DNA from: Agrococcus sediminis
GTDB taxonomy: Bacteria > Actinomycetota > Actinomycetes > Actinomycetales > Microbacteriaceae
NCBI RefSeq assembly: GCF_007923295.1
Contig: NZ_VOIR01000016.1
Location: 124,001-188,000, forward strand
Direction of reading: 5' to 3'
Length of the DNA stretch: 64,000 bases
In this document: positions 27,099 to 38,845 of the stretch, piece by piece
Layout: every line of letters begins with the position of its first letter
How positions within the stretch are numbered: position 1 is the stretch's first letter
The notes under the pieces: model-generated
What the model saw: the letters and a program-made list of their open reading frames with translations, nothing else
Told to the model about the DNA's origin: nothing
The model's database searches: none
Position numbers and translations under genes: made by a program

Positions 27099-27143
27099 TG
27101 GTCGGGCTGACAGGATTTGAACCTGCGACCCCTTGACCCCCAG
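27099..27143 (-). tRNA. 3' fragment of tRNA-Pro(GGG): attachment site of the integrated element
   Basis: Read on the minus strand, these 45 bases run from position 32 of the anticodon loop (C, T33, GGG anticodon at 27139-27141) through the 3' anticodon stem TCAAG, variable loop GGGTC, T-arm GCAGG/CCTGT, acceptor CAGCCCG, discriminator A and encoded CCA (27099-27101). The 5' anticodon stem needed to pair with TCAAG (CTTGA) is absent: the matching bases are unrelated, and no D-arm or 5' acceptor strand follows. It is therefore a partial tRNA, as left at one end when an element integrates into a tRNA 3' end. Confidence 0.85.
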
Positions 27144-27499
27144 GCGTCCAGACGGCGTCGTCGAGGCCGAAATCCGCGTGATTCCGGGCCTCAGGTCATG
27201 CAGCGCACGTCACGAGATGCATGGTTTGCATGATTCTGGTCCCCTTCTGGTCCCCCTCCGCCACCGCCTCCCGCGTCTCCCAATGAGCGGTGCTTCAAGT
27301 GCCCGAGCACCCAGATTGATCCGCGCACGAGATTCCGAGGCGGGCCGAGGTTGACCGGGTCGAGGGCGCTCAGCAGCACCTCCGAACCCACTTGCGGCGT
27401 GCTGTGACCCGAATCCAACCGCCGCAGATGTCTGGGCGCTCTTGCGATTCCTCGATAGCACCACAATGCCCGGACCTCACGTTGCGATCGAAGTCTCGA
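27144..27499. other. Non-coding left end of the element
   Basis: 356 bases without a convincing gene, between the tRNA fragment and the end of the SLATT-type gene. It holds two tandem 11-base repeats (27234-27255), and base composition drops here relative to the chromosome on the left. Nothing else recognisable. Confidence 0.6.
27234..27255. repeat. Tandem 11-base direct repeats, candidate integrase arm-type sites
   Basis: TTCTGGTCCCC occurs twice head to tail (27234-27244, 27245-27255), about 90 bases inside the tRNA fragment. Tyrosine integrases bind short direct repeats (arm sites) at such distance from the core site, and TGGTCCCC-type repeats are common in actinobacterial tRNA-integrating elements. 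Function is inferred from place and form. Confidence 0.5.
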
Positions 27500-28423
27500 T
27501 CAAGCCCTGCCTATGTGGGGAGGCGGCAACGGCTCCTCGCCGCGGGTAGCCAGCCACATTGTGTGCTCCCGACTGATTGCTTCCTCAGCATCCGCCACCG
27601 CCTGCGGCCAGTCCTTAGCGCTCACGCCGCGGAGAACATCTGCTTGAACGGCCAGTTCACCTGCCGCCACCCTGTACGCGGAGGTCAGTTGGGAGTGTTG
27701 CTTGATCGCCAGCCAGGCGGCTCCTCCTGCAACGAACGCAGCGACGATGCCGGCGAAGTCGAACGGCTCGTCGCGACCTAGGGAAAGAGCGGCAGCTACG
27801 ATTGCCAGCAACTCACCAAGAAGAAGCGCATAGCGCCACGCCGTAGCACGGACCTCGTTCTTCCGGGCGTTAGACGAGTACCAGGCGCGCTGTTCTTCTG
27901 TCCTTTGTTCGAGATAAGCGTCTCTGCGTTCGGAGAATGAAGATCGACGGAGATCGAGCATGCTCTCTGTGAGCACCGCATCGCCAGGACCAACGTTGAT
28001 TCGGTCCTTGCCACGTTGCAAGACTTCGCTGACTCGGGTTCGAAGCAGTGCCTCAGCTTCTTGTTCAGTGAGAGTCGGACCGAAAGGCTCTCCCTGGACG
28101 GCGAAACGCCATGCGAGTGTCTTGGTTGACTCGGCGACCGCGCGTCCGGCGTACCAGTCGCGTTCGGGCTGAAATCGGATCAAAGCTAACTCGGCTAGTG
28201 CGGCTACTACGAACGCGAGAAGCACTACAAGGCCAGAGATGTCGAAACTTCCGATGGCGATGCCCAGCGCCGCGGCGAGCGTTGCGATTAGAAGCGCAAC
28301 TAGTCGGGAGGCGCTTAGCCGGACGTACGCTGTTTGTCCGCGCCCTGACGCTTCGCTTGCCGCATCGTGGATAACGGGCAACGTGATGCTCCCTGGCCCG
28401 CGGGAGTTGTTGTGACTGCTCAT
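27500..28423 (-). CDS. SLATT-type (DUF4231-like) membrane effector protein
   Basis: A 307-residue membrane protein with two pairs of transmembrane helices (about 41-59 and 63-83; 199-215 and 223-240), separated by a charged, helical cytosolic region (RDAYLEQRTEEQRAWYSSNA). Near the C-terminus ADAEEAISREHTMWLATRG matches the conserved end of SLATT_3/SLATT_1 proteins, predicted pore-forming effectors of nucleotide- or TIR-linked defence systems. ATG 28423 overlaps the TIR stop (ATGA) and is preferred over ATG 28432. Last gene of a three-gene operon. Lower GC than the chromosome. Confidence 0.78.
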   Translation of the reverse strand: MSSHNNSRGPGSITLPVIHDAASEASGRGQTAYVRLSASRLVALLIATLAAALGIAIGSFDISGLVVLLAFVVAALAELALIRFQPERDWYAGRAVAESTKTLAWRFAVQGEPFGPTLTEQEAEALLRTRVSEVLQRGKDRINVGPGDAVLTESMLDLRRSSFSERRDAYLEQRTEEQRAWYSSNARKNEVRATAWRYALLLGELLAIVAAALSLGRDEPFDFAGIVAAFVAGGAAWLAIKQHSQLTSAYRVAAGELAVQADVLRGVSAKDWPQAVADAEEAISREHTMWLATRGEEPLPPPHIGRA

Positions 28424-28881
28424 CGCGTGCATGTACTCATCGTGTTGGTGGGCATCGACCTACCGCGGCTCGTCGCTGCGATTGCTCGCTCGATGGCATC
28501 GTCAAACTGATTGACATCTGCTGGAGTGTTCCAGTCGAGAATTTCAGCGCCGTACTCTGTCAACCCTTCGGGGACTGGGGCGTCGGGATCGATACGAATG
28601 CCAATGATGCCCTTTCCCTGTTCCTTACTCCACTGGATCTCTTTCTCGACCCACTCACTTTGGGAGGTCTCCTTCCCGATGAGAACGATTGTGGCCGATG
28701 ACCCTTTGATCCGCTCCTTGATCTTTCGGCTGATGTAATCCGCGTCCTGGCTCTTCACGGGGTCGAGCAGGTGCCGTCCCGTGAAGTCAACGTTGACGTG
28801 CTTGTTGTACGTCATCAGGTTCAAGCCACGGGCTTTCATCTGATCGGCATGCTGGTAACTGATAAAGACTCGACGGGTCAT
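28420..28881 (-). CDS. TIR-like domain protein (DUF1863/ThsB-like)
   Basis: A 153-residue single-domain TIR protein. VFISYQHAD at residues 5-13 is the first strand and loop; the middle has SRKIKERIKGSSATIVLIGKET (in parts: SSATIVLIG) and SEWVEKEIQWS at 76-84, where Glu79/Glu81 are candidates for the catalytic glutamate; IIGIRIDPDAPVPEGL follows. The form resembles MTH538/DUF1863 TIR domains, as in ThsB, which make cyclic ADP-ribose-type signals. ATG 28881 overlaps the stop of the upstream zinc-ribbon gene; its own stop overlaps the SLATT start. This places signal maker and membrane effector in one coupled unit. Confidence 0.82.
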   Translation of the reverse strand: MTRRVFISYQHADQMKARGLNLMTYNKHVNVDFTGRHLLDPVKSQDADYISRKIKERIKGSSATIVLIGKETSQSEWVEKEIQWSKEQGKGIIGIRIDPDAPVPEGLTEYGAEILDWNTPADVNQFDDAIERAIAATSRGRSMPTNTMSTCTR

Positions 28882-29684
28882 GCGCCCTCCTCGGCGGGAG
28901 CGAGCGTTGCCATCTGCTTGCACAACGGACACTTCTTCAGCAGTGCGCCGCTCTTGATGACATATCCGCACTCTCGGCATCGCCACTTGCGGTTCCTGGA
29001 ACTGTTGGGCACCTTCGAGAGCTCAGCGTCTGTCTGGTAGTACTCGGGGGCGTCTGCCCAGCTAAATCCGGCCTCTCGCCCCCACGACGGATACGCGTAG
29101 CCTGATCGAGCACGCGCGAACGCTTCGATTCGCTCGACTTCCCCCAAGTATTCGGCTGTGCGGTCAGGGCGCTCGTCGCATATCCGGCGAAGAGTCGCCA
29201 CAGTCTCAACATCGATCGGTTTCATCGTGCGGAACTGCGTAGAACAGATCGCTGCTAACGGCTCTGCCAGATCGCTCGCGAGGATGGGGTCTATGAAGTG
29301 CATCTTGTCGGCAGCGAGGGCGTAGTCGCGGTTGACCGCACCCTGGGTGCCTTCCGTGTACCAGCCAACGTGGTAATACCCGGAGATCACTCTCCCCTGG
29401 TGCGGCTTGCGTGTCGTGAGGAAGAAGATGGTGGCCGCGCCATCGAGAACGATCCGATTTCGCATGGACGGCTCACAGGTGGAGAACAGGCCGTATGTTC
29501 CGGTCTCGATGTTTGGGTCGCTCTTGTTATCCGCACGTCGGGTGATCTCGCGAACTGGCCATCGGGCGAGGGGCTCAGAGAAGTAGACAGACAGGTAGCC
29601 GCGGCCAGCATCGGGGAGCTCGCGCCACGGGTCGCCAAGGCGACGCGCCGCTGCGCCTCCCTCGTGATCCCGGTTCTGTCGCAT
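28878..29684 (-). CDS. Zinc-ribbon protein with unrecognised N-terminal domain, first gene of TIR-SLATT operon
   Basis: A 268-residue protein. The last ~35 residues are a zinc ribbon: WRCRECGYVIKS and KKCPLCKQ (two CxxC knuckles). The N-terminal ~150 residues (YLSVYFSEPL, GTYGLFSTCEPSMRN, ATIFFLTTRK, GRVISGYYHVGWYTEG) are strand-rich and have the feel of a PUA-like/base-sensing barrel, but I cannot assign a family. The start ATG 29684 faces the kinase-like gene 68 bases away. Position suggests the sensor or specificity part of the trio; that is inference only. Confidence 0.6.
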   Translation of the reverse strand: MRQNRDHEGGAAARRLGDPWRELPDAGRGYLSVYFSEPLARWPVREITRRADNKSDPNIETGTYGLFSTCEPSMRNRIVLDGAATIFFLTTRKPHQGRVISGYYHVGWYTEGTQGAVNRDYALAADKMHFIDPILASDLAEPLAAICSTQFRTMKPIDVETVATLRRICDERPDRTAEYLGEVERIEAFARARSGYAYPSWGREAGFSWADAPEYYQTDAELSKVPNSSRNRKWRCRECGYVIKSGALLKKCPLCKQMATLAPAEEGA

Positions 29685-29752
29685 AGCTTGATGCTAGGGG
29701 TGACCTCTGACACATCCCGGGAGCCACGCTGGGCTGAGCGAAGGAGCTGGTG

Positions 29753-30376
29753 ATGGCCAAGACTGATCTCACCATCCGTCGCGGTGCGGTCATCGTGTTC
29801 GAGGGCCTCGATCAGACTGGTAAGTCGACTCAGTTGAACCGCCTCCGTGGCTCGCTCGACGCGGAGTCCACGGTGTTCGCTCACATGCCAAGCGGCTTCA
29901 CTACGTTCACCGAGCGTGTGTACAGAGCGCTGGAGGGCGAGACCGCTGACGAGAAGCCCAGGTCAGGCCTCGCCCAGCAGCTAGCGCATCTCGCGTGCCA
30001 TGCGGAGTCGGTGCCTGATCTCAAGCGAGCTGCGGAGACGCGATCTTTGATTCTGGATCGTTGGTGGTGGTCCACCCTCGCTTACGGCTGGTACGGCGGA
30101 TCAGTGAAGCAGTCAGGACTCCCTGAGTCGAGCTTCAAGGAACTCATCGACACGATCTGGTCGCCAATCATGCCGTCTATTGTGTTCGTTTTCCTCGAAC
30201 CCCACCACCTCGACCCGAACAACGCTCCGGGCGTACAGGATGGCTATCGAGCACTCTTGGACGAGTATGCCGAGTCCGCGGTTGTCGTCCCGGTAGCGAG
30301 CGAAGAAGAGACACACTCGTTTGTGACTGAGACGCTTCTGAATCGCGGACTTGCTGCCCGAGTTGAGAATCGATGA
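29753..30376 (+). CDS. Thymidylate kinase-like nucleotide kinase
   Basis: A 207-residue P-loop kinase of the TMK fold: VFEGLDQTGKSTQLNRL (residues ~15-31) is the P-loop, and LILDRWWWSTLAYGWYGG replaces the usual DRY/DRF...SSLAYQG motif. The late region FVFLEPHHLDPNN differs from normal TMK (the LID arginines are not clear), so it may act on a modified nucleotide. Start ATG 29753 has AAGGAG at a 6-base spacing. The thymidylate-synthase-like gene follows after 6 bases, so both are co-expressed. A housekeeping tmk is expected elsewhere in the genome. Confidence 0.75.
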   Translation: MAKTDLTIRRGAVIVFEGLDQTGKSTQLNRLRGSLDAESTVFAHMPSGFTTFTERVYRALEGETADEKPRSGLAQQLAHLACHAESVPDLKRAAETRSLILDRWWWSTLAYGWYGGSVKQSGLPESSFKELIDTIWSPIMPSIVFVFLEPHHLDPNNAPGVQDGYRALLDEYAESAVVVPVASEEETHSFVTETLLNRGLAARVENR

Positions 30377-30382
30377 GGCGCG

Positions 30383-31372
30383 GTGGCCGTCTATCGAGAT
30401 GTGGAGCAGGCGTTCTTAGCCGAGTTGCATGCCGTTGCTGACTCTGGAGAACTTGTTGAGGTCCGCGGAGAGCGGACCCGCGAGCTGCGGGCGCGACTCA
30501 TCGAGGTGTCTGACATTCGGTCTCGCCACGTTGTGCTCCCCCACCGAAACAACAACGTTTTTGCCTCGATAGCGGAGAGCATGTGGGTGTTGGCGGGCCG
30601 AAACGACTTGAGCTTTCTCAGCGCCTATTTGGAGCGCGCGGTCGACTTCTCGGATGATGGCCTGACATGGCGTGCTGGGTACGGCCTCCGGCTCCGAAGC
30701 TGGAACGGCGTGGATCAACTCGCGGAGATTGTGAAGATTCTCCGGAGAGACCCGCTCTCGCGGCGTGCCGTCGCGAGCATCTACGATCCCGATCGCGACT
30801 TCGTGGAGAGTCGAGATATCCCATGCAACAACTGGCTTCACTTCCTCATGAGGGATGGGCATCTCGACCTCCACGTGGCTGCCCGCAGCACTGACATATG
30901 GTGGGGATTTTCAGGCATCAACGCTTTCGAGTGGACACTACTGCTTGAAGTGATGTCGCGGTGGCTCCGATGTATGCCTGGGCGACTGGTCTTCTTTAGC
31001 TCTTCCCTGCATCTCTACGAGCGCCACTTCGACCGGGCTTCACGACTTCTAGCCAGTCAGCCGAGCCCGGCGGCGTCCGACGCGACAGGGCAGCCGCAAT
31101 TCGACACAGATTGGGAGGACGCCCCCGCGGCGTGGGCCGAGTGGATGCGTCTGGAGGCCGGCATCCGCTCTGGCCAAGACCTCGCGGCGCTCGACTGCAA
31201 CCTCACCGACCCGCTCCTGCTCGCATACATTCGAATGATCGATCTATATTGGTCCGCGCAAAGTGGAGCCGAACCCAGCGTCCTAGACGACAAGCTAGTT
31301 GAACTTGGAGACAGCCGGCTTGCCGCCGCCGCGCGCGAGTATCTCGAACGAACTCAACGGTTGCAGCATTGA
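30383..31372 (+). CDS. Thymidylate synthase-like (pyrimidine C5-methyl/hydroxymethyltransferase-like) protein
   Basis: A 329-residue divergent ThyA-fold protein. Aligned motifs: YGLRLRSW (YGxxxR), DPLSRRAVASIYDP (SRR phosphate binding), IPCNNWLHF with candidate nucleophile Cys148 (canonical PCH...QF, the His is Asn here), RSTDIWWGFSGINAFEW (RSxDxxLGxPFNIA; the Asn is kept) and SSSLHLYERHF (GDxHlYxxH). Retained Cys and Asn suggest activity on dUMP/dCMP or analogues; the changed residues fit phage-type hydroxymethyl or other modified-base synthases. GTG 30383 follows the kinase closely. The final ~90 residues are unlike ThyA. Confidence 0.72.
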   Translation: MAVYRDVEQAFLAELHAVADSGELVEVRGERTRELRARLIEVSDIRSRHVVLPHRNNNVFASIAESMWVLAGRNDLSFLSAYLERAVDFSDDGLTWRAGYGLRLRSWNGVDQLAEIVKILRRDPLSRRAVASIYDPDRDFVESRDIPCNNWLHFLMRDGHLDLHVAARSTDIWWGFSGINAFEWTLLLEVMSRWLRCMPGRLVFFSSSLHLYERHFDRASRLLASQPSPAASDATGQPQFDTDWEDAPAAWAEWMRLEAGIRSGQDLAALDCNLTDPLLLAYIRMIDLYWSAQSGAEPSVLDDKLVELGDSRLAAAAREYLERTQRLQH

Positions 31373-31382
31373 GCCCGACGCG

Positions 31383-32384
31383 CTAGGTAGCTGATGCGAG
31401 CGCGTTCGAACGGCCGGCGACCCGCTGGTTGATGCCCCACTTTGGGGGGAAAAACGGCCTTACTGGCGGGCCTTGCGGTGCGAACTGCTGTTTGATCCTG
31501 TTGCGACTGCCGACTCCACGCACATTGGGGTGCATTACTCGCGCGTACTTGTCGGTTTCGCAAAACAGGTTCTGGCAGTCAATGAGCGTCAAAGCTCTAC
31601 CGAATAGATCGTCAAAAACGATGCCTTGATCTTCGAACTGCGCCTGTTGCGTGTCGACCATCCATCGGATGATGTCTTCGGGAGGTACACCATTGAGCTG
31701 CGGGAAGCACTTCGCGATACCACTGCGCGCGCCCGGTCCAGGCACGACAAAGTCGTTCTCATCGAAGTCGATCACCGAGGTGTAGTTGAGGTCGATCGCC
31801 AGTTGATAAGAGAGGAAAGGACCGAGTGAAGGAAACGTCGAAATCGTCTCAAAGACCTGGCTAAGGGACCTAGCGTGCTCGATCTGCGTGGCAACCCCGG
31901 AACGGATCATGTGCTCGGTCAGCAGCAGATGGTTGCGATGCTTCCGAACCGCGCCGAACGGCGGGGGCGGAACGATATACGCCGCAGAGTAAACTCTCTC
32001 GCCGGTAGCAATTCTTGCGTCGAGAACCTTGCTGTAGGCATCGACATCGAATGTGGATGTTGTGATCTGACCGAATCTTGATTCCAACGCTTCCCATGTC
32101 GATGGCTTGTTGAAGAACCGAAACAGTAGAACGCGTAAGACGAGGTTTTCGGGGTCCTGGGGTCCCTCGTAGGCGATACGTATTAGATCTTGTGATACGC
32201 GGTCGGCGGCGCGGTAGGCGTTAGTGAAGCGATACTTGGACAGGACTACGTCATCGGTCCATGGGCCAGGTTCGCCGCGTAGCCTCGCGTGATACACGTG
32301 CTGCCGTTCGGCCGCGAAGTGCCAGTAGGACGAAAGCACCTCTGAAACGCCGACGTTGTGCCGACCAACTCTCACGCGCCGCAT
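31383..32384 (-). CDS. Putative DNA base hypermodification protein (HMUDK-helical / aGPT-Pplase-like)
   Basis: A 333-residue protein resembling the helical domain of 5-hydroxymethyl-dUMP DNA kinases (also called alpha-glutamyl/putrescinyl thymine pyrophosphorylase-like). Features: SYWHFAAERQHVYHARL at the N-terminus, FTNAYRAADRVSQDLI, then LVLRVLLFRFFNKPSTWEAL (in parts: LLFRFFNKPSTWEAL), and DLNYTSVIDFDENDFVVPGPGAR with GIAKCF. These match the predicted DNA base hypermodification family found with ThyA and kinase homologues in phages. It converges on the ThyA-like gene, 10 bases away. ATG 32384 is preferred (AGGAGG 5 bases before). Confidence 0.68.
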   Translation of the reverse strand: MRRVRVGRHNVGVSEVLSSYWHFAAERQHVYHARLRGEPGPWTDDVVLSKYRFTNAYRAADRVSQDLIRIAYEGPQDPENLVLRVLLFRFFNKPSTWEALESRFGQITTSTFDVDAYSKVLDARIATGERVYSAAYIVPPPPFGAVRKHRNHLLLTEHMIRSGVATQIEHARSLSQVFETISTFPSLGPFLSYQLAIDLNYTSVIDFDENDFVVPGPGARSGIAKCFPQLNGVPPEDIIRWMVDTQQAQFEDQGIVFDDLFGRALTLIDCQNLFCETDKYARVMHPNVRGVGSRNRIKQQFAPQGPPVRPFFPPKWGINQRVAGRSNALASAT

Positions 32385-32482
32385 CATGCCTCCTGTCGGT
32401 GCTTACCTCCGGCTCCCACGTGTGTCTAGGTTGTCACGAGGGGGCCGGCAATGGCCGGAGACGCGCCACCGTCGCTTGTGGT

Positions 32483-32794
32483 TCAGGCGTGCGTTCTCCG
32501 CGCGCGAGCGGTTCGACCGGCCATGAGTAGAAGGCTGACTGGTCCGATCCAGAGGAACTTGAAGGCGTTCCAGACGAACAGCAGGACTAGCAGGTAGAGC
32601 CACCCGGCGCCGCCGTCGTTGATGATCGTGGTGCAGATCGCGGCGGCGTAGAGGTAGGGCACGGCGAGGAGCATCGCGGGGATGCCCCATTTGAGGCCGC
32701 GTCTGGTGCGGATGGCGTTGATGAGCAGGTTGGTGGGTGCGTAGCGGAGTACGCCGTAGCCTCGTGCGCTGAGCGCAACGGATGTGCGGAGCAT
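32483..32794 (-). CDS. Small membrane protein of conjugative elements, unknown function
   Basis: A 103-residue protein with two hydrophobic helices ([20 protein letters not shown] and [20 protein letters not shown]) and a basic tail. An Arg/Tyr-rich N-terminus ([23 protein letters not shown]) may be cytosolic. GC rises to ~65% from here on, marking the change from cargo to element backbone. Similar short proteins are sometimes mislabelled as permeases; nothing here supports transport. Confidence 0.6.
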
Positions 32795-33006
32795 CGCGGG
32801 TCTCTCTTCCTCGTCATAGCGCGACGGTGTTCCGTCGTGGAGGCGGCTATGAACCGAGTGCCCTCAGAGGGGCTGTCCCGAAGGACCCGCGTAGTTGGCG
32901 AACCTGCCTCGTCATCCAGCGTACGACGGGCGTGCGACAGAGGGAACCCTGTCGGTGGGCGGGCGTGTACCTCGTCGGTGACCTTCGGAGTGAGAGGACA
33001 CCGATC

Positions 33007-34005
33007 ATGGCGGCGCTGGCGGAGCAGGTACAGGGTGAGCGGATAGCGCGGGTCGCGCTGTCGATGATCGCCGAACCCAACGACCCGACCACCGGCCGGG
33101 TTCTCGCCCATCACAACGGGATCGAGACGCTACGGCTGATCGACTCCGACGACGTGCCCGGCCTGCCGCGCGCCGACGTGCTGATGTGGCGCGCGCGGCT
33201 GGCGGCGCGGATCACGCCCGACCTGCCCGATCAGATCGCTCAGGCCGAACGGCTCGGGTTCGGCACACTCATCCCGGCCGACAAGGACTGGCCCGCCGGA
33301 TTGAACGACCTGGGTGAGCGTGCCCCCTATCTGCTGTGGACGCGTGGGGCGGCTTCGTTCCTGACGACGGCGCTGAGCGATCGCGTCACAATCACCGGCT
33401 CCCGAGCCGCCACCTCCTACGGCGAGCACATCACCGGCGAGCTGGCGACAGGTATGGCTGATGAGGAACGCATCGTTGTCGCCGGAGGCGCGTACGGGAT
33501 CGAAGGAGCCGCACACCGCGCTGTCCTCGCGGCCGGCGGGCAGACGATCGCGGTTCTGGCCGGCGGTGTCGACCGGCCCTACCCTGCCGGACACGGCGAC
33601 CTACTACGCCGAGTTGGTGAGGTCGGCTTGCTGGTGAGCGAGGTGCCGCCAGGGGCCGCGCCGACCCGGCACAGGTTCATCGCCCGGAACCGGCTGATGG
33701 CGGCGCTGTCGGGCGCCACCGTGATTCCCGAGGCCAGTGCCCGGTCAGCGGCGATGACCACCGTCCTCGCGGCACGAGACCTCGACCGAGGTGTTGGGGC
33801 TGTGCCCGGTCCGGTGACGAGCGCCGCCAGTAGCGGGACGAACGAGCTGATCCGACAGGGCCAGGCGACGCTCGTCACTCAGTCCAGCGACGTGATCGCG
33901 TTGCTTGACGCCGATGCTCCCGGACACCCAGTCTCGCGCTCGGAGGTCGGACGGGATTTCGGTCAGCGGCGGCCGTCACCGGGAACGCCGGGACGCTCGA
34001 TCTGA
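33007..34005 (+). CDS. DprA/Smf-like DNA-processing protein
   Basis: A 332-residue DprA-family protein. The Rossmann core shows TITGSRAATSYG, VVAGGAYGIEGAAHRAVLAAGG (canonical GGxARGID...AH), AVLAGGVDRPYPAGHGDLL, LVSEVPPGAAPTRHRFIARNRLMAALS, and VPGPVTSAASSGTNELIRQG. DprA protects incoming single-stranded DNA and loads RecA; on mobile elements it may protect transferred strands or act in defence. ATG 33007 has GAGAGGA 8 bases ahead; an earlier in-frame ATG lacks this. It lies tail to tail with the relaxase. Confidence 0.88.
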   Translation: MAALAEQVQGERIARVALSMIAEPNDPTTGRVLAHHNGIETLRLIDSDDVPGLPRADVLMWRARLAARITPDLPDQIAQAERLGFGTLIPADKDWPAGLNDLGERAPYLLWTRGAASFLTTALSDRVTITGSRAATSYGEHITGELATGMADEERIVVAGGAYGIEGAAHRAVLAAGGQTIAVLAGGVDRPYPAGHGDLLRRVGEVGLLVSEVPPGAAPTRHRFIARNRLMAALSGATVIPEASARSAAMTTVLAARDLDRGVGAVPGPVTSAASSGTNELIRQGQATLVTQSSDVIALLDADAPGHPVSRSEVGRDFGQRRPSPGTPGRSI

Positions 34006-34047: not shown

Positions 34048-37000
34048 TCACAGGCGCGGTGCGGGCCGAGTCACGGCGCTCGGTCGCACTTGTTCCCTCG
34101 TCGCGTCATCGCCGGAAAGGGATAGCGCGCGGTTGAGGGCGGCGCGGGTTCGTGCGGCGTCGATCTTCTGGCTGGTGCTTTCCGGCGCCGGCCCGAACGG
34201 GCTGCGATTGTCGATGATCTGGTAGCGGTCGCGGTAGGCAGCGACGGTACGCGCGGCGCGTCTCCACGCGTCGCGCTGCTTCTTGACGGTTGGCTCGGTG
34301 CCGAGCTTCGTGGCCCAGGGCTCTTTGTCGGTGAGGGCGCTGTGGAGCACGGCGTCGGCGCGCTGTTCGATGAGGTCGCGGCGCTCGTCCAGGGCTCGGC
34401 GCATCTCGTCGGCCATCGGCCCGCCAGCGTCAGGGATCAGGCCGGCGATCAGTCGAGGTGGTTTGCGGGTGCGGCCAGACCCGGCCGGTCTGGCCGTAGC
34501 GCGTGCGAGTCGGGCGTGGATCACGGAGGCGATGTCGTCGGCATCATCCACGTTGCGGGCGGCGATCAGTCGCGGGAGCAGGGTGTCGAGGTCGTGGTGG
34601 TTGGCTTCGGCGTGCCGCAGCTCGGCCGACAGCGCGCCGTAGGCGTCGGAGTCGAGCACGTAGCCGACTTGCTCGGGCGTGAGCCCGGCAGCGGCGAGCA
34701 GTGTCGACCAGCGGTCGTGCTGTGCGGCTTGCGCGATCGTGTCGAACTCGGCCGCGAGCTGGGTGATCGATCCCCAGTGTTCGTGCTCGGCGGTGATCGT
34801 CTCGTGCGCCGACAACTCCGCGCCGACGTGCTGGAGCACGCCGTACAGGACGCTGCGGGCGGTGGTGTTGGGGTTGTCGCCGGGATGCGGCTCGGTGTGT
34901 TCGTGATCGTCGCGGTCGACGGCGACGTAGGCGTGGTTTCGCTCGGCGCCGCGGGTCATCGAGACGTAGAAGTTCTCCCGCGTGGTCGTCGGGGTGACCA
35001 CGACGTGAGAGGTCTGGGTGGTCACGCCCTGCGCCCGGTGCGCGGTGATCGCGTAGCCCAGGTCCAGATGCTCGGCCACATAGTCGGCAGGTAGGACGAT
35101 CCCGCCGCCGAACCGGCGCCCGGTTGGGCGGATGCTGACCGATCCGTCCTCGCGGACCTGGGTGATCGTCCAGCGGTCGCCGTTGCGGACCCACCGGAGG
35201 CCGTTGCGCAGCCGGCGATCGTTGCGGCGGGTGATGACCAGATCGCCTTCCGACGCGGCAGTTCCATCGTGCAGGCCGACCTCGCGGGTCGGGTTCACTT
35301 GGCCGTCGATGATCCGATCCGCCCGCGCCCTGTCATTCAGCGTGATGACTGTCTCGTGGGTCTCGGCGACGAGGATCGACGCGAGGCCGGAGGAAAGATC
35401 GCGTCGCCAGGCGCTGTAGGCGGCGTCGATCATCGTCTCGGCGTCGCCGCCGGTAATCCGGCCGTGGTCGATGAGCGTGTCGATCGCTTCGGTGTGGCCG
35501 TGGCGGAGCTGTAGCGAGGTGGTCTTCTCCCAGGCGTGGGTGAAGCGGTGCAGGTCGTGAAGCTCAGGTGTGTCGTCGCGGGAGTGGACCAGCAGGCCGA
35601 ACGCGCCGCCGGCGTCGACCGATTGGAGCTGGCCCCAGTCTCCGACCAGCAGGGCCTTCGCTCCGGCCCTCTCGACCTCGCGGGTGATCCGGTCCAGTGA
35701 GGCGCTGCCGGCGAGGGAGGCTTCATCGATGATGACGAGCTGACCCGCCTCGAACGTGGTGCCGTGCATGAGGTGGTTCTGCCACCACTTCGCCGTGTTC
35801 TCCGTTGCGATCCCCAGATCGTCAGCGAGGACCTGAGCGGCGACCGCCGAAGGCGCCAGCCCGACCACGGACCCGGCGCCGTGCTCCTTCTCCCACGCTC
35901 GGCGCAGCGCGTTCATGGCGGTGGTCTTCCCAGCGCCGGCCGGGCCGACCAGCACATCCACGACCCGACCGGACACGGCGATCGCGGCCAACGCCGCGGC
36001 CTGGTCCTCGCCAAGCACCCGGCCGCGCGCGTCGGGCGTGCGGGCGATCCGCTCCACCGTCTCCAACGCCACCGCGGGGCCGGCCGTCGCGTCGGCGCGG
36101 GCCAGGAGGCGGTCTTCTGCGGCCAGCAGAGCCTCGGATGAGAACAGCGTCGAGTGCCGGGGACGGAACCGCGTCGTGCCGTCCGGACGGCGGAACTCGA
36201 GCGGGCTGGTCGCCTGCTCCGGCGGAGTGAGCCGCAGCGAGGCACGCTCGGCAGCGTCCACGACCAGACCGGTGATCGCTTCGCGGTCTTCGACGCTGGC
36301 GAACCGCCAGCCCATCAACTGACGGGACGCTTCAGCGTGCAGGTTCCACCGTGTCCAGGTCGAACGCTTCTCACCAAGCGTCTCCATCACCGCCTGCCCG
36401 ACCTCGCCCACCACGTCCAGCGGCACGTCGTCGGCGCGGAGCACCCGGCGCGCCTCGGCGCCGCTGGTGAGGGCGCGTGCCCATCCGGTCGCGTCCTGGT
36501 CTAGCACACGGCCGGCGCGTTGCCGCCACTCCGCGGTGAGGTCGGCCAGCGATCTGATCTGCTTCTCCGGCCGGGTGGCGAGCGTCGCTTGCGCCCGCAG
36601 TTTCAGCACCGTCCGGGCTGAGGGCTGTCGGCCGTGCGTGGCGACGTACTCCGCGATGAGCCGATCCTTCTCGGCCTCGATGTGCCGGGTGCGGGTGGAG
36701 AACTCGGCCACCAGCTCGTCGGGCACGCCCTCGATCTCCCACGCCGGGTTCCGGTCCCGCCCCCGTTCCCGCGCCTCCCAGTCCAATCCGAGTGTGCGGG
36801 TCATCCGGTCGGCTAGGGCAGCGTTATACAGCTCGGAGACAGCGACGACCGCCGAGTGCATCGGCCGCCCGGCGAGGGTCCGCCAGCGGCCGTCTTGGAC
36901 GGTCAGCACCTTGTTGCTGATGACGACATGGGTGTGCAGCTGGGGGTCACCGGCCCGGCTGTCGTAGTGATCGAACGCCGCCGCGACGACCCCGGCGACG

Positions 37001-37608
37001 TCGACGTGCGCAACCGCGCCGTCCGGGCCGGTTGCACCGACACGGGTTGCTGCAACCTCGCGCTCGAGGAACGCAACCAGCTCTGCAACCGCCGCATGAT
37101 GGGCGTCAGCAATCAGCGACTGCGTGCCCGCGTCCGCGACCGCCCAGATCGCAGAGACCGACTTCGGGACGCTGAACGTGAAGTCGAACCCCGCCACCGC
37201 GCGACGGGTGCCGCGCTCTGCCTCCTCTGCCTCGATCGCGGCGACCTCCTGGGCACGAGCGGCTGGCCCGAGTACGGGATCGAGTGCGTTGACGCGCTGC
37301 GTGATCCGTTCGGTGATCGACGCGAACTGTTGGTAGGCGCGTCCCAGCGGTTCGCCGGTGATCGGGTCATGGCCCATCCCGATCAAGAGCTGTAACTGGG
37401 CCTCCGACACCTGAGCACCCTCGACCAGCTCGCCGCGACCCAGTCGGCCAAGGCCCGAGCCCATCCAGAAGCCCGGTGGCGCACCCGCCTCGGCGTAGTA
37501 GCGAGTCAGCGGCGTGCTCAGGCGTCGGTCGCCGTCGCCTGCGGCGACCGACTTCAACAGGTACTTGTACCCATCACCGGCCGACATCACCCGCATCGAA
37601 ACCGTCAC
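34048..37608 (-). CDS. MobF relaxase-helicase (TrwC/TraA type)
   Basis: The conjugative relaxase nicks the transfer origin and unwinds the strand to be moved. The ~1186-residue product has an N-terminal TrwC relaxase domain (catalytic tyrosines in LTRYYAEAG; HUH metal site in DPQLHTHVVISNK) and a helicase with Walker A VGPAGAGKTTAMNALRR, motif II VIIDEASLAGSAS, and a UvrD-like C-terminal YAITAHRAQGVT. GTG 37608 gives VTVSMRVMSAGDGYKYLL, the family start; ATG 37596 is an alternative. An open frame up to 37728 would run into the divergent nuclease gene. Transfer origin not identified. Confidence 0.92.
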   Translation of the reverse strand: MTVSMRVMSAGDGYKYLLKSVAAGDGDRRLSTPLTRYYAEAGAPPGFWMGSGLGRLGRGELVEGAQVSEAQLQLLIGMGHDPITGEPLGRAYQQFASITERITQRVNALDPVLGPAARAQEVAAIEAEEAERGTRRAVAGFDFTFSVPKSVSAIWAVADAGTQSLIADAHHAAVAELVAFLEREVAATRVGATGPDGAVAHVDVAGVVAAAFDHYDSRAGDPQLHTHVVISNKVLTVQDGRWRTLAGRPMHSAVVAVSELYNAALADRMTRTLGLDWEARERGRDRNPAWEIEGVPDELVAEFSTRTRHIEAEKDRLIAEYVATHGRQPSARTVLKLRAQATLATRPEKQIRSLADLTAEWRQRAGRVLDQDATGWARALTSGAEARRVLRADDVPLDVVGEVGQAVMETLGEKRSTWTRWNLHAEASRQLMGWRFASVEDREAITGLVVDAAERASLRLTPPEQATSPLEFRRPDGTTRFRPRHSTLFSSEALLAAEDRLLARADATAGPAVALETVERIARTPDARGRVLGEDQAAALAAIAVSGRVVDVLVGPAGAGKTTAMNALRRAWEKEHGAGSVVGLAPSAVAAQVLADDLGIATENTAKWWQNHLMHGTTFEAGQLVIIDEASLAGSASLDRITREVERAGAKALLVGDWGQLQSVDAGGAFGLLVHSRDDTPELHDLHRFTHAWEKTTSLQLRHGHTEAIDTLIDHGRITGGDAETMIDAAYSAWRRDLSSGLASILVAETHETVITLNDRARADRIIDGQVNPTREVGLHDGTAASEGDLVITRRNDRRLRNGLRWVRNGDRWTITQVREDGSVSIRPTGRRFGGGIVLPADYVAEHLDLGYAITAHRAQGVTTQTSHVVVTPTTTRENFYVSMTRGAERNHAYVAVDRDDHEHTEPHPGDNPNTTARSVLYGVLQHVGAELSAHETITAEHEHWGSITQLAAEFDTIAQAAQHDRWSTLLAAAGLTPEQVGYVLDSDAYGALSAELRHAEANHHDLDTLLPRLIAARNVDDADDIASVIHARLARATARPAGSGRTRKPPRLIAGLIPDAGGPMADEMRRALDERRDLIEQRADAVLHSALTDKEPWATKLGTEPTVKKQRDAWRRAARTVAAYRDRYQIIDNRSPFGPAPESTSQKIDAARTRAALNRALSLSGDDATREQVRPSAVTRPAPRL

Positions 37609-37672
37609 GACATTGAGGTAGGCAACGGCGCACGAGAAGGATCGCACGGGACATGGATGGGAGACTTGAGCG

Positions 37673-38845
37673 GTGAATCTTGACGAGTTGCTCCAGGTGA
37701 TGGATCGCGCTGCGGCGAACCTCGCCAAGCTCGACGCGGTCTGGGAGCGAGCCCAGCCGATGCTCCCTTCCGGCCCAAGTCGTGGATCGAGCCGAGAGTA
37801 TGAGGACCTACGGAGAGCCTGGAGCGTGTTGCTGTCCGGGTTGCCGCCAATCGACGGATGGACAGTGACCGAAGAACTCCCCGATGCGGATGCTGCCGGT
37901 CAGGCATTCATCGACTACGCAGACATCGGGGAGCCGCCCTTTGCGCTCATGAACCAGTTGGAGGAACCATCCAACCAGCTTGATGAGTACCGATTCCGAC
38001 TGGCACAGGCCCGGCGTCGAGCGATCCACGAGCGGCTGGACGACCTCACCTCGACCATCAACGAGACCCTTCCACAGGTAGTGGAATCGGTACCGCGCGA
38101 TTCAAACGATCGACTTGAGGACCCTACGACGGCGGTAATCGAGGACGCGATCAGCGAGATCGAACGACTGCTCGGAGACACCACCGAGCGCGGCGGACGG
38201 TGGACCGACCTTCACCGTCACATGCACTTCGGGCAGGGTCACGACTGGCATGACATCGTTGAGATGGATTGGCCTTCGGTTCGTGCGGACATCGAGGCAG
38301 CGAGTCTGGCGGAGTCGGACCCGCTGCCGGTCCCTGGGATCGACCTCGGGGTGGCCGCCTCTGCGAGGCCAGCCGGAGCGGCCAGTACCGGCTTGTCGTG
38401 GTCCGCTCTCGATGACGACGGATTCGAGCGATTGCTATTCGATCTCTTACGGGCGTTCCCGCGCTATCAGAACGTCGAGTGGCTGATGAAGACCCGCGCG
38501 GCGGATCGAGGACGCGACCTGTCGGCAGAGCGCGTCATCCAAGACGACGGCGGGACTACTCGAACCGAACGGGTCATAATCCAGGCGAAGCACTGGACCA
38601 CCAAGTCGGTCGGCCCCGCCGACGTCACGGGCACGCTCGCGGCGCTCTCGCTGTGGGAACCGCCGCCTGTTCGTGCGCTCGTCATTGCGACGAGTGGACG
38701 ATTCACGACGGATGCGGTGGCCGTAGCGGAGAAACACAACGCCGATGGAAAGCTGCCCTTCATCGAACTCTGGCCGGACAGCCGACTGGAAACTCTGCTG
38801 TCCCAGCGCCCCGACCTGATAGCGAGCCACGGGCTTCGGCCGTGA
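37673..38845 (+). CDS. Mrr-like restriction endonuclease-fold protein
   Basis: A 390-residue protein. The last ~150 residues form a PD-(D/E)xK nuclease of the Mrr_cat type: FERLLFDLLRAFPRYQNVEWLMKTRAADRGRDLSAERV, with the Asp in GRD and the QAK motif in VIIQAKHW, then PADVTGTLAALSLWEPP and ALVIATSGRFTTDAV. The N-terminal ~230 residues are helical and unrecognised; they could bind DNA or a partner. Mrr enzymes cut modified DNA. GTG 37673 begins 65 bases from the divergent relaxase start. It stops 1 base before the stop codon of the convergent PIN gene. Confidence 0.8.
   Translation: MNLDELLQVMDRAAANLAKLDAVWERAQPMLPSGPSRGSSREYEDLRRAWSVLLSGLPPIDGWTVTEELPDADAAGQAFIDYADIGEPPFALMNQLEEPSNQLDEYRFRLAQARRRAIHERLDDLTSTINETLPQVVESVPRDSNDRLEDPTTAVIEDAISEIERLLGDTTERGGRWTDLHRHMHFGQGHDWHDIVEMDWPSVRADIEAASLAESDPLPVPGIDLGVAASARPAGAASTGLSWSALDDDGFERLLFDLLRAFPRYQNVEWLMKTRAADRGRDLSAERVIQDDGGTTRTERVIIQAKHWTTKSVGPADVTGTLAALSLWEPPPVRALVIATSGRFTTDAVAVAEKHNADGKLPFIELWPDSRLETLLSQRPDLIASHGLRP

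What the first reader, a model, noticed from the sequence alone, without database searches (positions are those of the whole stretch)
27500..32384. Six-gene cargo combining a TIR-SLATT operon with thymidylate-synthase-like, kinase-like and base-hypermodification-like genes
Two blocks face each other: zinc-ribbon protein / TIR / SLATT membrane protein (coupled by two ATGA overlaps), and TMK-like / ThyA-like (6-base spacing) followed by a convergent HMUDK-helical-like gene. TIR plus SLATT fits a signal-plus-pore abortive defence unit. ThyA-like, kinase-like and HMUDK-like proteins are the toolkit phages use to make modified pyrimidines. Having both together, next to the att end of an ICE, suggests either a defence system that marks or senses modified thymidine, or a new nucleotide-signal pathway. 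The link between the two halves is inference from adjacency.
Basis: partly seen in the sequence, partly recalled or inferred. Interest (0 to 1): 0.8.

Follow-up and report, generated by a model that had tools for sequence, protein, structure and literature searches.

The report
TIR defence cassette with base-modifying enzymes
Six neighbouring genes on a mobile DNA element look like one immune unit that joins a TIR alarm and membrane effector to enzymes of the kind phages use to build modified thymine, and closely matching sets recur in other bacteria and in salt-loving archaea.

Summary
A pattern scan of the species-genome collection for the zinc-ribbon protein (ZnR) gave 18 loci: 18 of 18 carry TIR, 15 of 18 the HMUDK-like gene (one miss is cut by a contig end), 11 of 18 ThyA and TMK. 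The core recurs in haloarchaea. From the other side, 11 of 30 cellular HMUDK-like loci carry TIR, and those 11 also carry Nmad2 or ZnR. The link is not strict: 10 of 15 Nmad2 plasmids lack the HMUDK-like gene, and one ZnR locus has no writer gene.

Two labels change. The HMUDK-like protein matches only the helical domain, not the kinase; its confident model most resembles a phage amino-acid transferase and DNA glycosylases, with weak scores. The ThyA-like protein is nearer CMP 5-hydroxymethylase than thymidylate synthases. ZnR's weaker model resembles YTH and EVE modified-base readers.

Most likely: a modified-deoxyuridine writer coupled to a reader, TIR alarm and killing effector. Coupling is well supported by genomics; chemistry and trigger are inference. 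My searches listed no paper on this combination; a 2026 Science paper validated related domains in E. coli.

The parts
27500..28432 (-). SLATT membrane effector (P0001), two SLATT domains, about four hydrophobic stretches; the start at 28423 gives the ATGA overlap with TIR
   Evidence: Pfam SLATT_3 5.6e-39 and SLATT_1 9.1e-34; hydropathy peaks starting at residues 37, 56, 198, 224
28420..28881 (-). TIR protein of the ThsB kind (P0002); W-V-x-x-E-I motif present
   Evidence: Pfam ThsB_TIR 9.2e-24; PADLOC ThsB 4e-18 and PDC-M50B 1.1e-17; solved TIRs 8fz9 4.7e-13, 6lhy 8.6e-6; motif in relatives
28878..29684 (-). Reader-like protein (P0003): N-terminal part whose model resembles YTH/EVE modified-base readers, C-terminal rubredoxin-like zinc ribbon
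   Evidence: model pLDDT 66, pTM 0.62; the first 39 PDB rows are all YTH domains, best E 1.4e-3, none below 1e-3; EVE protein second in the viral library, prob 0.97, E 0.045; C236, C239, C252, C255 invariant in 14 of 14
29753..30376 (+). TMK-like P-loop nucleotide kinase (P0004), P-loop GLDQTGKST
   Evidence: Pfam Thymidylate_kin 2.6e-11, below the NCBIfam dTMP kinase cut-off; solved thymidylate kinase 2.1e-6; PADLOC PDC-M51B 6e-8
30383..31372 (+). ThyA-fold pyrimidine 5-hydroxymethylase-like enzyme (P0005)
   Evidence: best solved relatives are CMP 5-hydroxymethylase, 7.5e-26 and 8e-26, against 3.6e-16 for the best thymidylate synthase; PHROG phage thymidylate synthases 1.7e-65; alignment
31383..32387 (-). 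HMUDK-helical family protein (P0006): DNA-glycosylase-like fold, nearest a phage 5-phosphomethyl-dU glycinyltransferase; no P-loop kinase domain
   Evidence: Pfam HMUDK_hel 3.6e-104 over residues 16-290 of 334; model pLDDT 94.2, pTM 0.92; Foldseek 8z2m prob 0.91 E 0.04, 2h56 prob 0.84 E 0.13
29685..29752 (.). 68-bp divergent region between the zinc-ribbon/TIR/SLATT genes and the TMK/ThyA genes
   Evidence: sequence
27099..27258 (.). Element end; 27104-27141 repeats the 3' part of a tRNA-Pro gene that is intact 38 kb away
   Evidence: second copy at C16:189298-189335, one mismatch, inside tRNA-Pro(ggg); the same end aligns in L031, L034, L038, L042, L043, L044

Best explanation
The six genes are one mobile antiviral unit with a writer branch and an alarm branch. 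Writer (inferred): P0005 puts a hydroxymethyl group on dUMP, P0004 phosphorylates the product, and P0006, a glycosylase-fold transferase, attaches a further group to the 5-position, in DNA or on a nucleotide, as phages do when they hypermodify thymidine. Alarm (inferred from families): P0003, a YTH/EVE-like reader with a zinc ribbon, monitors that modified base; when the mark is absent or disturbed during infection it releases the TIR protein, which makes a NAD-derived signal, and the signal opens the SLATT channel and stops the cell. Shown here: gene content, recurrence, linkage, exchange of effectors, fold resemblances. Not shown: any enzymatic activity, the base, the trigger, protection. 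My confidence by step: one co-inherited system 0.9; TIR-to-effector antiviral alarm 0.7; writer makes a 5-substituted deoxyuridine 0.5; the mark works as 'self' that keeps the alarm off 0.3.
For: Linkage: 18 ZnR-anchored loci, TIR 18 of 18, HMUDK-like 15 of 18, SLATT 13 and TPR-S 5 with no overlap. In L037, L040 and L041 the DNA alignment to the window stays within 27137-33229, so the cassette but not the element around it is shared. Independent anchor: of 30 HMUDK-like loci from plasmids and genomes, 11 have TIR and those 11 have Nmad2 or ZnR; 0 of the other 19 have Nmad2 or ZnR. ThsB_TIR, counted alone, occurs in 6 of 100 phylum genomes, own genome included. Terracoccus L045 has HMUDK, MazG_C, ZnR and TIR in one direction, MazG_C and ZnR overlapping by one base. 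Writer: P0005 nearest CMP 5-hydroxymethylase; phage LuckyBarnes has a ThyA 48% identical over 223 residues and an HMUDK protein 39% identical over 302, beside two annotated glycosyltransferases; 44 of 80 viral-contig loci have ThyA near the gene. Reader: YTH and EVE matches. Alarm: related TIR-Nmad2 loci carry patatin phospholipases and, in L151, a SIR2-STALD protein of ThsA architecture.
Against: No activity data. Chloroflexi L046 has ZnR-TIR-SLATT without a writer gene, and Nocardioides L047 lacks HMUDK in the stretch held, so the alarm may work without the writer. Only 5 of the 15 Nmad2 plasmid records also hold a P0006 relative. Conversely 19 of 30 HMUDK-like loci have no TIR, and 13 have an unrelated ImmA partner set. 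Writer enzymes vary: MazG_C replaces ThyA-TMK in L045 and L047, and neither ThyA nor TMK was found in the five haloarchaeal loci. The P0003 model is weak, TM-scores of the YTH rows are 0.24-0.48, and no match reaches E 0.001. Profile comparison finds no relation between ZnR and Nmad2 (probability 2.9%), so their equivalence rests on position alone. P0006's fold matches are E 0.04 or worse.
Confidence: 0.4

Rival explanations
1. Modified-nucleotide signal: the ThyA/TMK/HMUDK enzymes make a free modified deoxyuridine nucleotide, not a DNA mark. It is either a decoy or inhibitor whose loss sets off the TIR, or the acceptor to which the TIR joins ADP-ribose, giving a new second messenger sensed by SLATT or TPR-S.
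For: MazG_C (a nucleotide pyrophosphohydrolase family), and less often dCTP deaminase and nucleotide kinases, recur as partners of HMUDK-like genes (13, 3 and 5 of 30 loci; Pfam); these act on free nucleotides. Effector families here (SLATT, TPR-S, SLOG-patatin, SIR2-STALD) are, by recall, tied to soluble signals. Precedent: Clover uses dTTP and p3diT as activating and inhibiting signals (PMC12265719, passages read).
Against: P0006 most resembles enzymes that act on bases in DNA, though weakly, and its phage relatives lie in phage groups that by recall include known DNA hypermodifiers. A YTH/EVE-like reader suggests a base in nucleic acid.
Confidence: 0.25
2. Sensor of phage base modification: P0006 and P0003 recognise or excise hypermodified bases of incoming phage DNA, and the product triggers the TIR and SLATT. 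ThyA and TMK keep the thymidylate pool supplied or shape the ligand.
For: Glycosylase-like fold of P0006; three related TIR-Nmad2 loci carry a uracil-DNA glycosylase-superfamily protein and no P0006 relative; YTH/EVE-like reader.
Against: Does not explain a dedicated hydroxymethylase-like enzyme and kinase in 11 of 18 ZnR loci. P0006 relatives in viral contigs have ThyA nearby in 44 of 80, as in biosynthetic loci.
Confidence: 0.2
3. Two independent cargoes that merely share a mobile element.
For: ZnR-TIR-SLATT can occur alone (L046); HMUDK-like genes also have an unrelated partner set with ImmA in 13 of 30 loci; 10 of 15 Nmad2 plasmids have no P0006 relative; several actinobacterial copies share the same element backbone.
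Against: Recurrence in haloarchaea and in genera where only the cassette is shared; complete co-occurrence of TIR with Nmad2 or ZnR among the 30 HMUDK loci.
Confidence: 0.07
4. Not antiviral: an addiction or element-conflict module that protects the mobile element itself, e.g. the mark tells element-bearing from element-free cells.
For: The cassette lies at the end of an integrative element and HMUDK-like genes occur on 21 of the 72,556 plasmids.
Against: TIR, SLATT, TPR-S, patatin and SIR2-STALD partners are, by recall, typical of antiviral systems; thymidylate synthase and 5-hydroxymethyluracil kinase domains were among those validated against phage in E. coli (PMC13092281, section 5 read).
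Confidence: 0.08

Closest known systems
Thoeris (ThsB TIR plus ThsA-type effector)
   Same: ThsB-type TIR protein next to a separate effector; signal-then-effector logic is the likely one. One relative of this design, L151, has a SIR2-STALD (ThsA-like) gene nearby, though that gene is followed by its own TIR gene
   Different: No ThsA in the window; effector is SLATT, or TPR-S plus a second TIR in relatives; a reader-like protein and base-modifying enzymes are part of the unit
TIR-SLATT neighbourhoods of firmicute phages (PMC9503650; one passage read)
   Same: TIR beside a SLATT gene, with SLATT predicted to be an ADP-ribose-derivative-regulated membrane effector
   Different: That passage names HTH and metallopeptidase partners, not ThyA, TMK, HMUDK or a reader protein
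Phage thymidine hypermodification loci (M6, ViI, PaMx11-like; PMC6449724 and PMC9599517, passages read)
   Same: ThyA-fold enzyme and an HMUDK/aGPT-PPlase-type protein; 5-hmdU as intermediate in the published scheme
   Different: There it protects phage DNA; here it is carried by a cellular mobile element beside TIR and effector genes. TIR is near the gene in 1 of 80 viral contig loci
DefensePredictor-validated E. coli systems (PMC13092281: sections 5 and 15 and passages read; figures and supplements not seen)
   Same: Section 5 names a 5-hydroxymethyluracil kinase and a thymidylate synthase among newly validated defence domains; the legend of the validated systems also abbreviates dNMP kinase and NMAD
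   Different: 'TIR' and 'SLATT' do not occur in its main text; gene make-up and sequences could not be seen, so homology is untested
Clover (PMC12265719, passages read)
   Same: Thymidine nucleotides govern an antiviral effector
   Different: A dGTPase and a nucleotidyltransferase in the passages read, not a hydroxymethylase or HMUDK-like protein

Membership tests
Thoeris | ThsB-type TIR protein | tested here: met
   Pfam ThsB_TIR 9.2e-24; PADLOC ThsB models 4e-18
Thoeris | ThsA effector (SIR2-SLOG, or its type II counterpart) beside ThsB | tested here: not met
   None of the eight window proteins scanned matches a ThsA model in PADLOC or NCBIfam, or SIR2/STALD in Pfam; the neighbour is SLATT
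TIR-SLATT effector pairs | TIR gene adjacent to a SLATT membrane protein | tested here: met
   ATGA-coupled genes; Pfam
CBASS | CD-NTase (SMODS) cyclase | tested here: not met
   No cyclase family among the Pfam, PADLOC or NCBIfam matches of the eight window proteins
5-hmdU DNA kinase | P-loop kinase domain | tested here: not met
   P0006 matches only the helical domain over 16-290 of 334; its model is mostly helical and none of the 50 PDB rows shown is named a kinase
aGPT-PPlase / 5-phosphomethyl-dU amino-acid transferase | Glycosylase-like transferase fold | tested here: inconclusive
   Top Foldseek match 8z2m prob 0.91 but E 0.04, TM 0.32 and 0.36; no PDB sequence match below E 0.26
aGPT-PPlase / 5-phosphomethyl-dU amino-acid transferase | Transfer activity on 5-phosphomethyl-dU in DNA | not testable with these tools
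   needs enzyme assay
Thymidylate synthase | Fold and catalytic Cys, paired Arg, His-x-Tyr (roles recalled) | tested here: met
   Pfam 3.8e-22; residues kept in alignment with the genome's own ThyA
Thymidylate synthase | True methyl transfer (synthase) rather than hydroxymethylation | tested here: inconclusive
   Nearer CMP 5-hydroxymethylase than any synthase; below the cut-off of each of the eight NCBIfam synthase models matched; WDEW motif of the chromosomal ThyA absent
YTH/EVE (PUA-like) modified-base readers | PUA-like fold | tested here: inconclusive
   YTH chains fill the first 39 PDB rows, best E 1.4e-3, on a pLDDT 66 model; no Pfam family on that part above its cut-off
DefensePredictor TS/dNMPk/5hmdUk/NMAD systems | Homologous proteins in the same arrangement | not testable with these tools
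   Sequences and figures not held; only text and legends read

The most novel reading that the evidence does not exclude
A new class of immunity in which the cell itself makes a hypermodified deoxyuridine and couples it, through a YTH/EVE-like or Nmad2 reader, to TIR signalling with interchangeable killing effectors: self-marking and abortive signalling in one mobile unit, shared by bacteria and archaea.
Probability: 0.33. Interest if true: 0.93.

Novelty: new variant of a known kind. Interest (0 to 1): 0.8.

Why it matters
Thymidine hypermodification is known as a phage way to escape host nucleases. Here enzymes of that kind travel with a TIR alarm in cellular mobile elements, in bacteria and archaea. 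If writer and alarm work together, cells would be using phage-type modified DNA or nucleotides as part of innate immunity, and the system would give a direct, assayable link between base chemistry and TIR activation. It also offers two families of unstudied reader-like proteins (ZnR, Nmad2) and a natural swap series of effectors. A first answer needs one LC-MS comparison and one phage panel.

Tried and rejected
Two independent cargoes: largely rejected by recurrence. HMUDK as kinase: rejected, helical domain only. ZnR as a sequence relative of Nmad2: not supported (probability 2.9%); only position and a short TC-x-P-x-x-R-like resemblance remain. ZnR in viruses: none in IMG/VR (17 pattern matches, none confirmed) and none in 50,697 phage records at E 0.01; 1 of 72,556 plasmids. 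P0003 in 396 phylum genomes: 3 matches, of which one is the window's own and two are short and weak (37 and 72 residues, E above 1e-4), not counted as relatives. PDB sequence search with the HMUDK profile: six matches, best E 0.26, taken as chance. Rfam and tRNA scans of the window: nothing. Plasmid DNA search with the whole cassette: three short single-gene matches. P0006 in phages: 480 records, but only 32 cover 80% or more of the query, and about half of the spread listing's rows cover about a third. Literature: searches listed no paper that I recognised as being on this combination (listings seen, and passages of the papers named in this report). Burroughs 2015, Iyer 2013 and Lee 2022 are not held; what I know of them is recall. 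PMC7641849 (EVE domains) was searched for partner terms and gave nothing relevant. PMC11955845 passages describe a phage thymidine hypermodification set and add nothing on defence by cells.

Limits of the counts. The genome scan finds only relatives holding one of two short exact motifs, so others are missed. In the census family seeds were chosen after seeing some of the loci; stretches held are of unequal length; 12 pairs among the 30 HMUDK proteins exceed 70% identity, so loci are not all independent; the TIR base rate covers ThsB_TIR only. L034 may be the window's own genome or a near copy (99.98% over 12.6 kb). Start codons in relatives are mechanical first starts. Names and roles recalled, from no call: the catalytic role of the TIR Glu, and the roles of the ThyA Cys, Arg, Asn and Trp.


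Full report
What is there. The window holds six genes between 27500 and 32387. Zinc-ribbon protein (ZnR), TIR and SLATT read leftwards and are coupled by two ATGA overlaps. TMK-like and ThyA-like read rightwards 6 bases apart, starting 68 bases from the ZnR gene. The HMUDK-helical gene converges on ThyA with a 10-base gap. Profile matches are clear for all but ZnR, whose N-terminal 230 or so residues reach no Pfam cut-off. The genome has its own thyA elsewhere (two matches, 7.2e-127 on contig C15 and 2.2e-22 here), so the cassette copy is not the housekeeping enzyme.

The element. A 38-base piece at 27104-27141 recurs with one mismatch at C16:189298-189335, about 38 kb on, inside an intact tRNA-Pro gene; a TrwC-type relaxase lies between (34048-37728, Pfam 9.3e-95). 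So the cassette sits at one end of an element integrated at tRNA-Pro. The same roughly 160-base end aligns in L031, L034, L038, L042, L043 and L044. In L030/L036, L034, L035, L038 and partly L031, L043 and L044, neighbouring element DNA aligns too. In L037, L040 and L041 alignments of over 150 bases stay within window 27137-33229 although 6 kb or more is held beyond the cassette, so it also occurs without this backbone.

Do the halves recur together? (a) Anchored on ZnR: a scan of the species-genome collection with two short motifs matched 26 stretches, 19 of them relatives, in 18 distinct loci. TIR is present in 18 of 18; HMUDK-like in 15 of 18 (misses: L039 cut by its contig end, L046, L047); ThyA and TMK in 11 of 18; SLATT in 13 of 18 and TPR-S in the other 5. 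All six genes of the window are in 5 of 18 (L034, L035, L036, L037, L041; L034 may be the window's own genome). The eleven loci with ThyA and TMK (L034-L044) come from Microbacterium, Micropruina, Schumannella, Promicromonospora, an unnamed Propionibacteriales, Propioniciclava, Brevibacterium, Isoptericola, Agromyces and Leucobacter, with identity to the window down to 66% for ThyA. In four haloarchaeal genomes (L048-L051) HMUDK, ZnR, a protein of about 190 residues, a DUF4231/SLATT-like protein and TIR stand together, and a Natronomonas gomsonensis plasmid has the same set (L017). (b) Anchored on the HMUDK-like protein: 30 cellular loci, namely all 21 plasmid records, 5 of the 6 genomes found and 4 of the 5 found (own genome dropped from each). 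TIR is nearby in 11 of 30, in each within 3.8 kb of the HMUDK gene; ImmA/IrrE in 13; both in 0; neither in 6 (Fisher p 3e-4). Each TIR locus has Nmad2 (8) or ZnR (3), and none of the other 19 has either. ThsB_TIR alone occurs in 6 of 100 phylum genomes, the window's own among them. Against a strict link: of 15 plasmid records with Nmad2 only 5 are also in the P0006 list.

Modularity. The alarm side swaps effectors: SLATT; or a 647-aa TPR-S protein plus a second TIR of 211 residues; in Nmad2 relatives also patatin phospholipases, one with a SLOG domain, and in L151 a SIR2-STALD protein of ThsA architecture, although that one is followed by a TIR gene of its own. The enzyme side swaps too: ThyA plus TMK; MazG_C (L045, L047, L006, L009, L029, L058); ThyA plus O-methyltransferase (L015, L145); radical SAM (L016). 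Four further Nmad2 plasmid loci were fetched (4 of the 15 records). TIR stands directly before Nmad2 in all four (Nmad2 by Pfam). Three of them, L149-L151, add MazG_C and a uracil-DNA glycosylase-superfamily protein (Pfam), and none of the four records is in the P0006 list. A glycosylase-superfamily protein in that place agrees with P0006's fold. In Terracoccus (L045) HMUDK, MazG_C, ZnR and TIR run in one direction, with MazG_C and ZnR overlapping by one base and 6 bases between ZnR and TIR, the strongest single sign of joint expression.

What the proteins are. P0006 gave a confident model (pLDDT 94.2, pTM 0.92). Its first PDB match is a phage 5-phosphomethyl-2'-deoxyuridine glycinyltransferase (8z2m, prob 0.91, E 0.04), then DNA-3-methyladenine glycosidase (prob 0.84), a queuine salvage enzyme (prob 0.63) and, lower, OGG1-type glycosylases among unrelated folds. 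The scores are weak; the glycosylase-like run is consistent. Its relatives in phage records are mainly from Salmonella, Pseudomonas, Vibrio, Klebsiella and Microbacterium phages, two listed rows being annotated pyrophosphorylase or aGPT-Pplase1. P0005 is nearer CMP 5-hydroxymethylase (7.5e-26) than any thymidylate synthase in the PDB (best 3.6e-16). It keeps the Cys, the Arg pair, His-x-Tyr and an Asn that aligns with the genome's own ThyA, where CMP 5-hydroxymethylase has Asp; by recall that Asn favours uracil. So 5-hydroxymethylation of dUMP or UMP is the likeliest reaction. P0004 is a divergent thymidylate kinase. P0003's model is moderate (pLDDT 66, pTM 0.62); YTH domains fill the first 39 PDB rows, best E 1.4e-3, and the second viral-library match is an EVE protein with prob 0.97 but E 0.045. 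The four zinc-ribbon cysteines are invariant in 14 of 14 sequences. The W-x-x-x-E motif of the TIR is found in 38 of 40 distinct TIR-family ORFs of these loci; misses are L029:3597 and L046:8001, both still ThsB_TIR by Pfam.

How it most likely works. Following the published phage scheme, in which 5-hmdU is incorporated, phosphorylated and then substituted (PMC6449724, passages read), the writer genes would give the host a 5-substituted deoxyuridine. Two rivals stay open: the modified nucleotide is itself the signal or decoy, or the unit senses phage base modification. The genomics shows association, not mechanism, and ZnR-TIR-SLATT without writer genes (L046) is a real point against strict dependence.

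What is known. TIR-SLATT pairs have been noted in firmicute phages (PMC9503650, one passage). DefensePredictor (Science 2026, PMC13092281; sections 5 and 15 and passages read, figures and supplements not seen) validated E. coli systems with thymidylate synthase and 5-hydroxymethyluracil kinase domains; its legend also abbreviates dNMP kinase and NMAD, and it lists aGPT-PPlase, MazG and MazG-C as predicted defence domains. TIR and SLATT are not in its main text. It cites Burroughs 2015 for earlier predictions of several of these domains; that paper is not held. None of the papers listed appeared to join hypermodification enzymes with TIR and SLATT. I therefore rate it a new variant of a known kind, with a categorically new reading left open.

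Noticed in passing
L004, L005, L007, L010, L011, L014, L018, L033, L056, L057, L059, L062, L144: A second partner set of HMUDK-like genes centred on an ImmA/IrrE peptidase, often with HTH, acyl carrier protein or holo-ACP synthase, a short ThyA-like protein and MazG_C. ImmA in 13 of 30 loci, never together with TIR. The role of an acyl carrier protein here is unexplained.
   Followed up: partly
L149, L150, L151: TIR, Nmad2, MazG_C and uracil-DNA glycosylase-superfamily genes on plasmids of Sulfitobacter, Mesorhizobium and Cupriavidus, with further TIR genes around and patatin (L150, L151) or SIR2-STALD (L151) genes: an HMUDK-free version of the same design.
   Followed up: partly
L012 and L013: On Sphingosinicella and Erythrobacter plasmids the HMUDK-like gene sits with an exonuclease-domain or DnaQ gene and DNA polymerase III alpha, without TIR or ThyA in the census; perhaps a replication-linked modification locus.
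   Followed up: no
L060, 4080-9243: Apilactobacillus kunkeei plasmids (13 records with the same score) carry a P0005-like ThyA in a row with an annotated D-Ala-D-Ala ligase, a 2'-deoxynucleoside 5'-phosphate N-hydrolase and hypothetical genes; looks like a small modified-nucleotide pathway.
   Followed up: no
window 32782-34005: DprA-like gene next to the cassette, matching PADLOC ShosA at 2.7e-45; probably an element gene.
   Followed up: no
L048-L051 and L017, gene between ZnR and the DUF4231 gene: Conserved haloarchaeal protein of about 190 residues with no Pfam match (P0010), inside the archaeal cassette in all five loci seen.
   Followed up: partly
L145, 8766-12506: Rhizobium beringeri locus has a 1,246-aa ORF, TIR-like by the census, with WD40 repeats by Pfam, beside the HMUDK gene.
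   Followed up: no
L061, 6968-7920: Acinetobacter plasmid HMUDK-like gene is annotated as two pieces.
   Followed up: no
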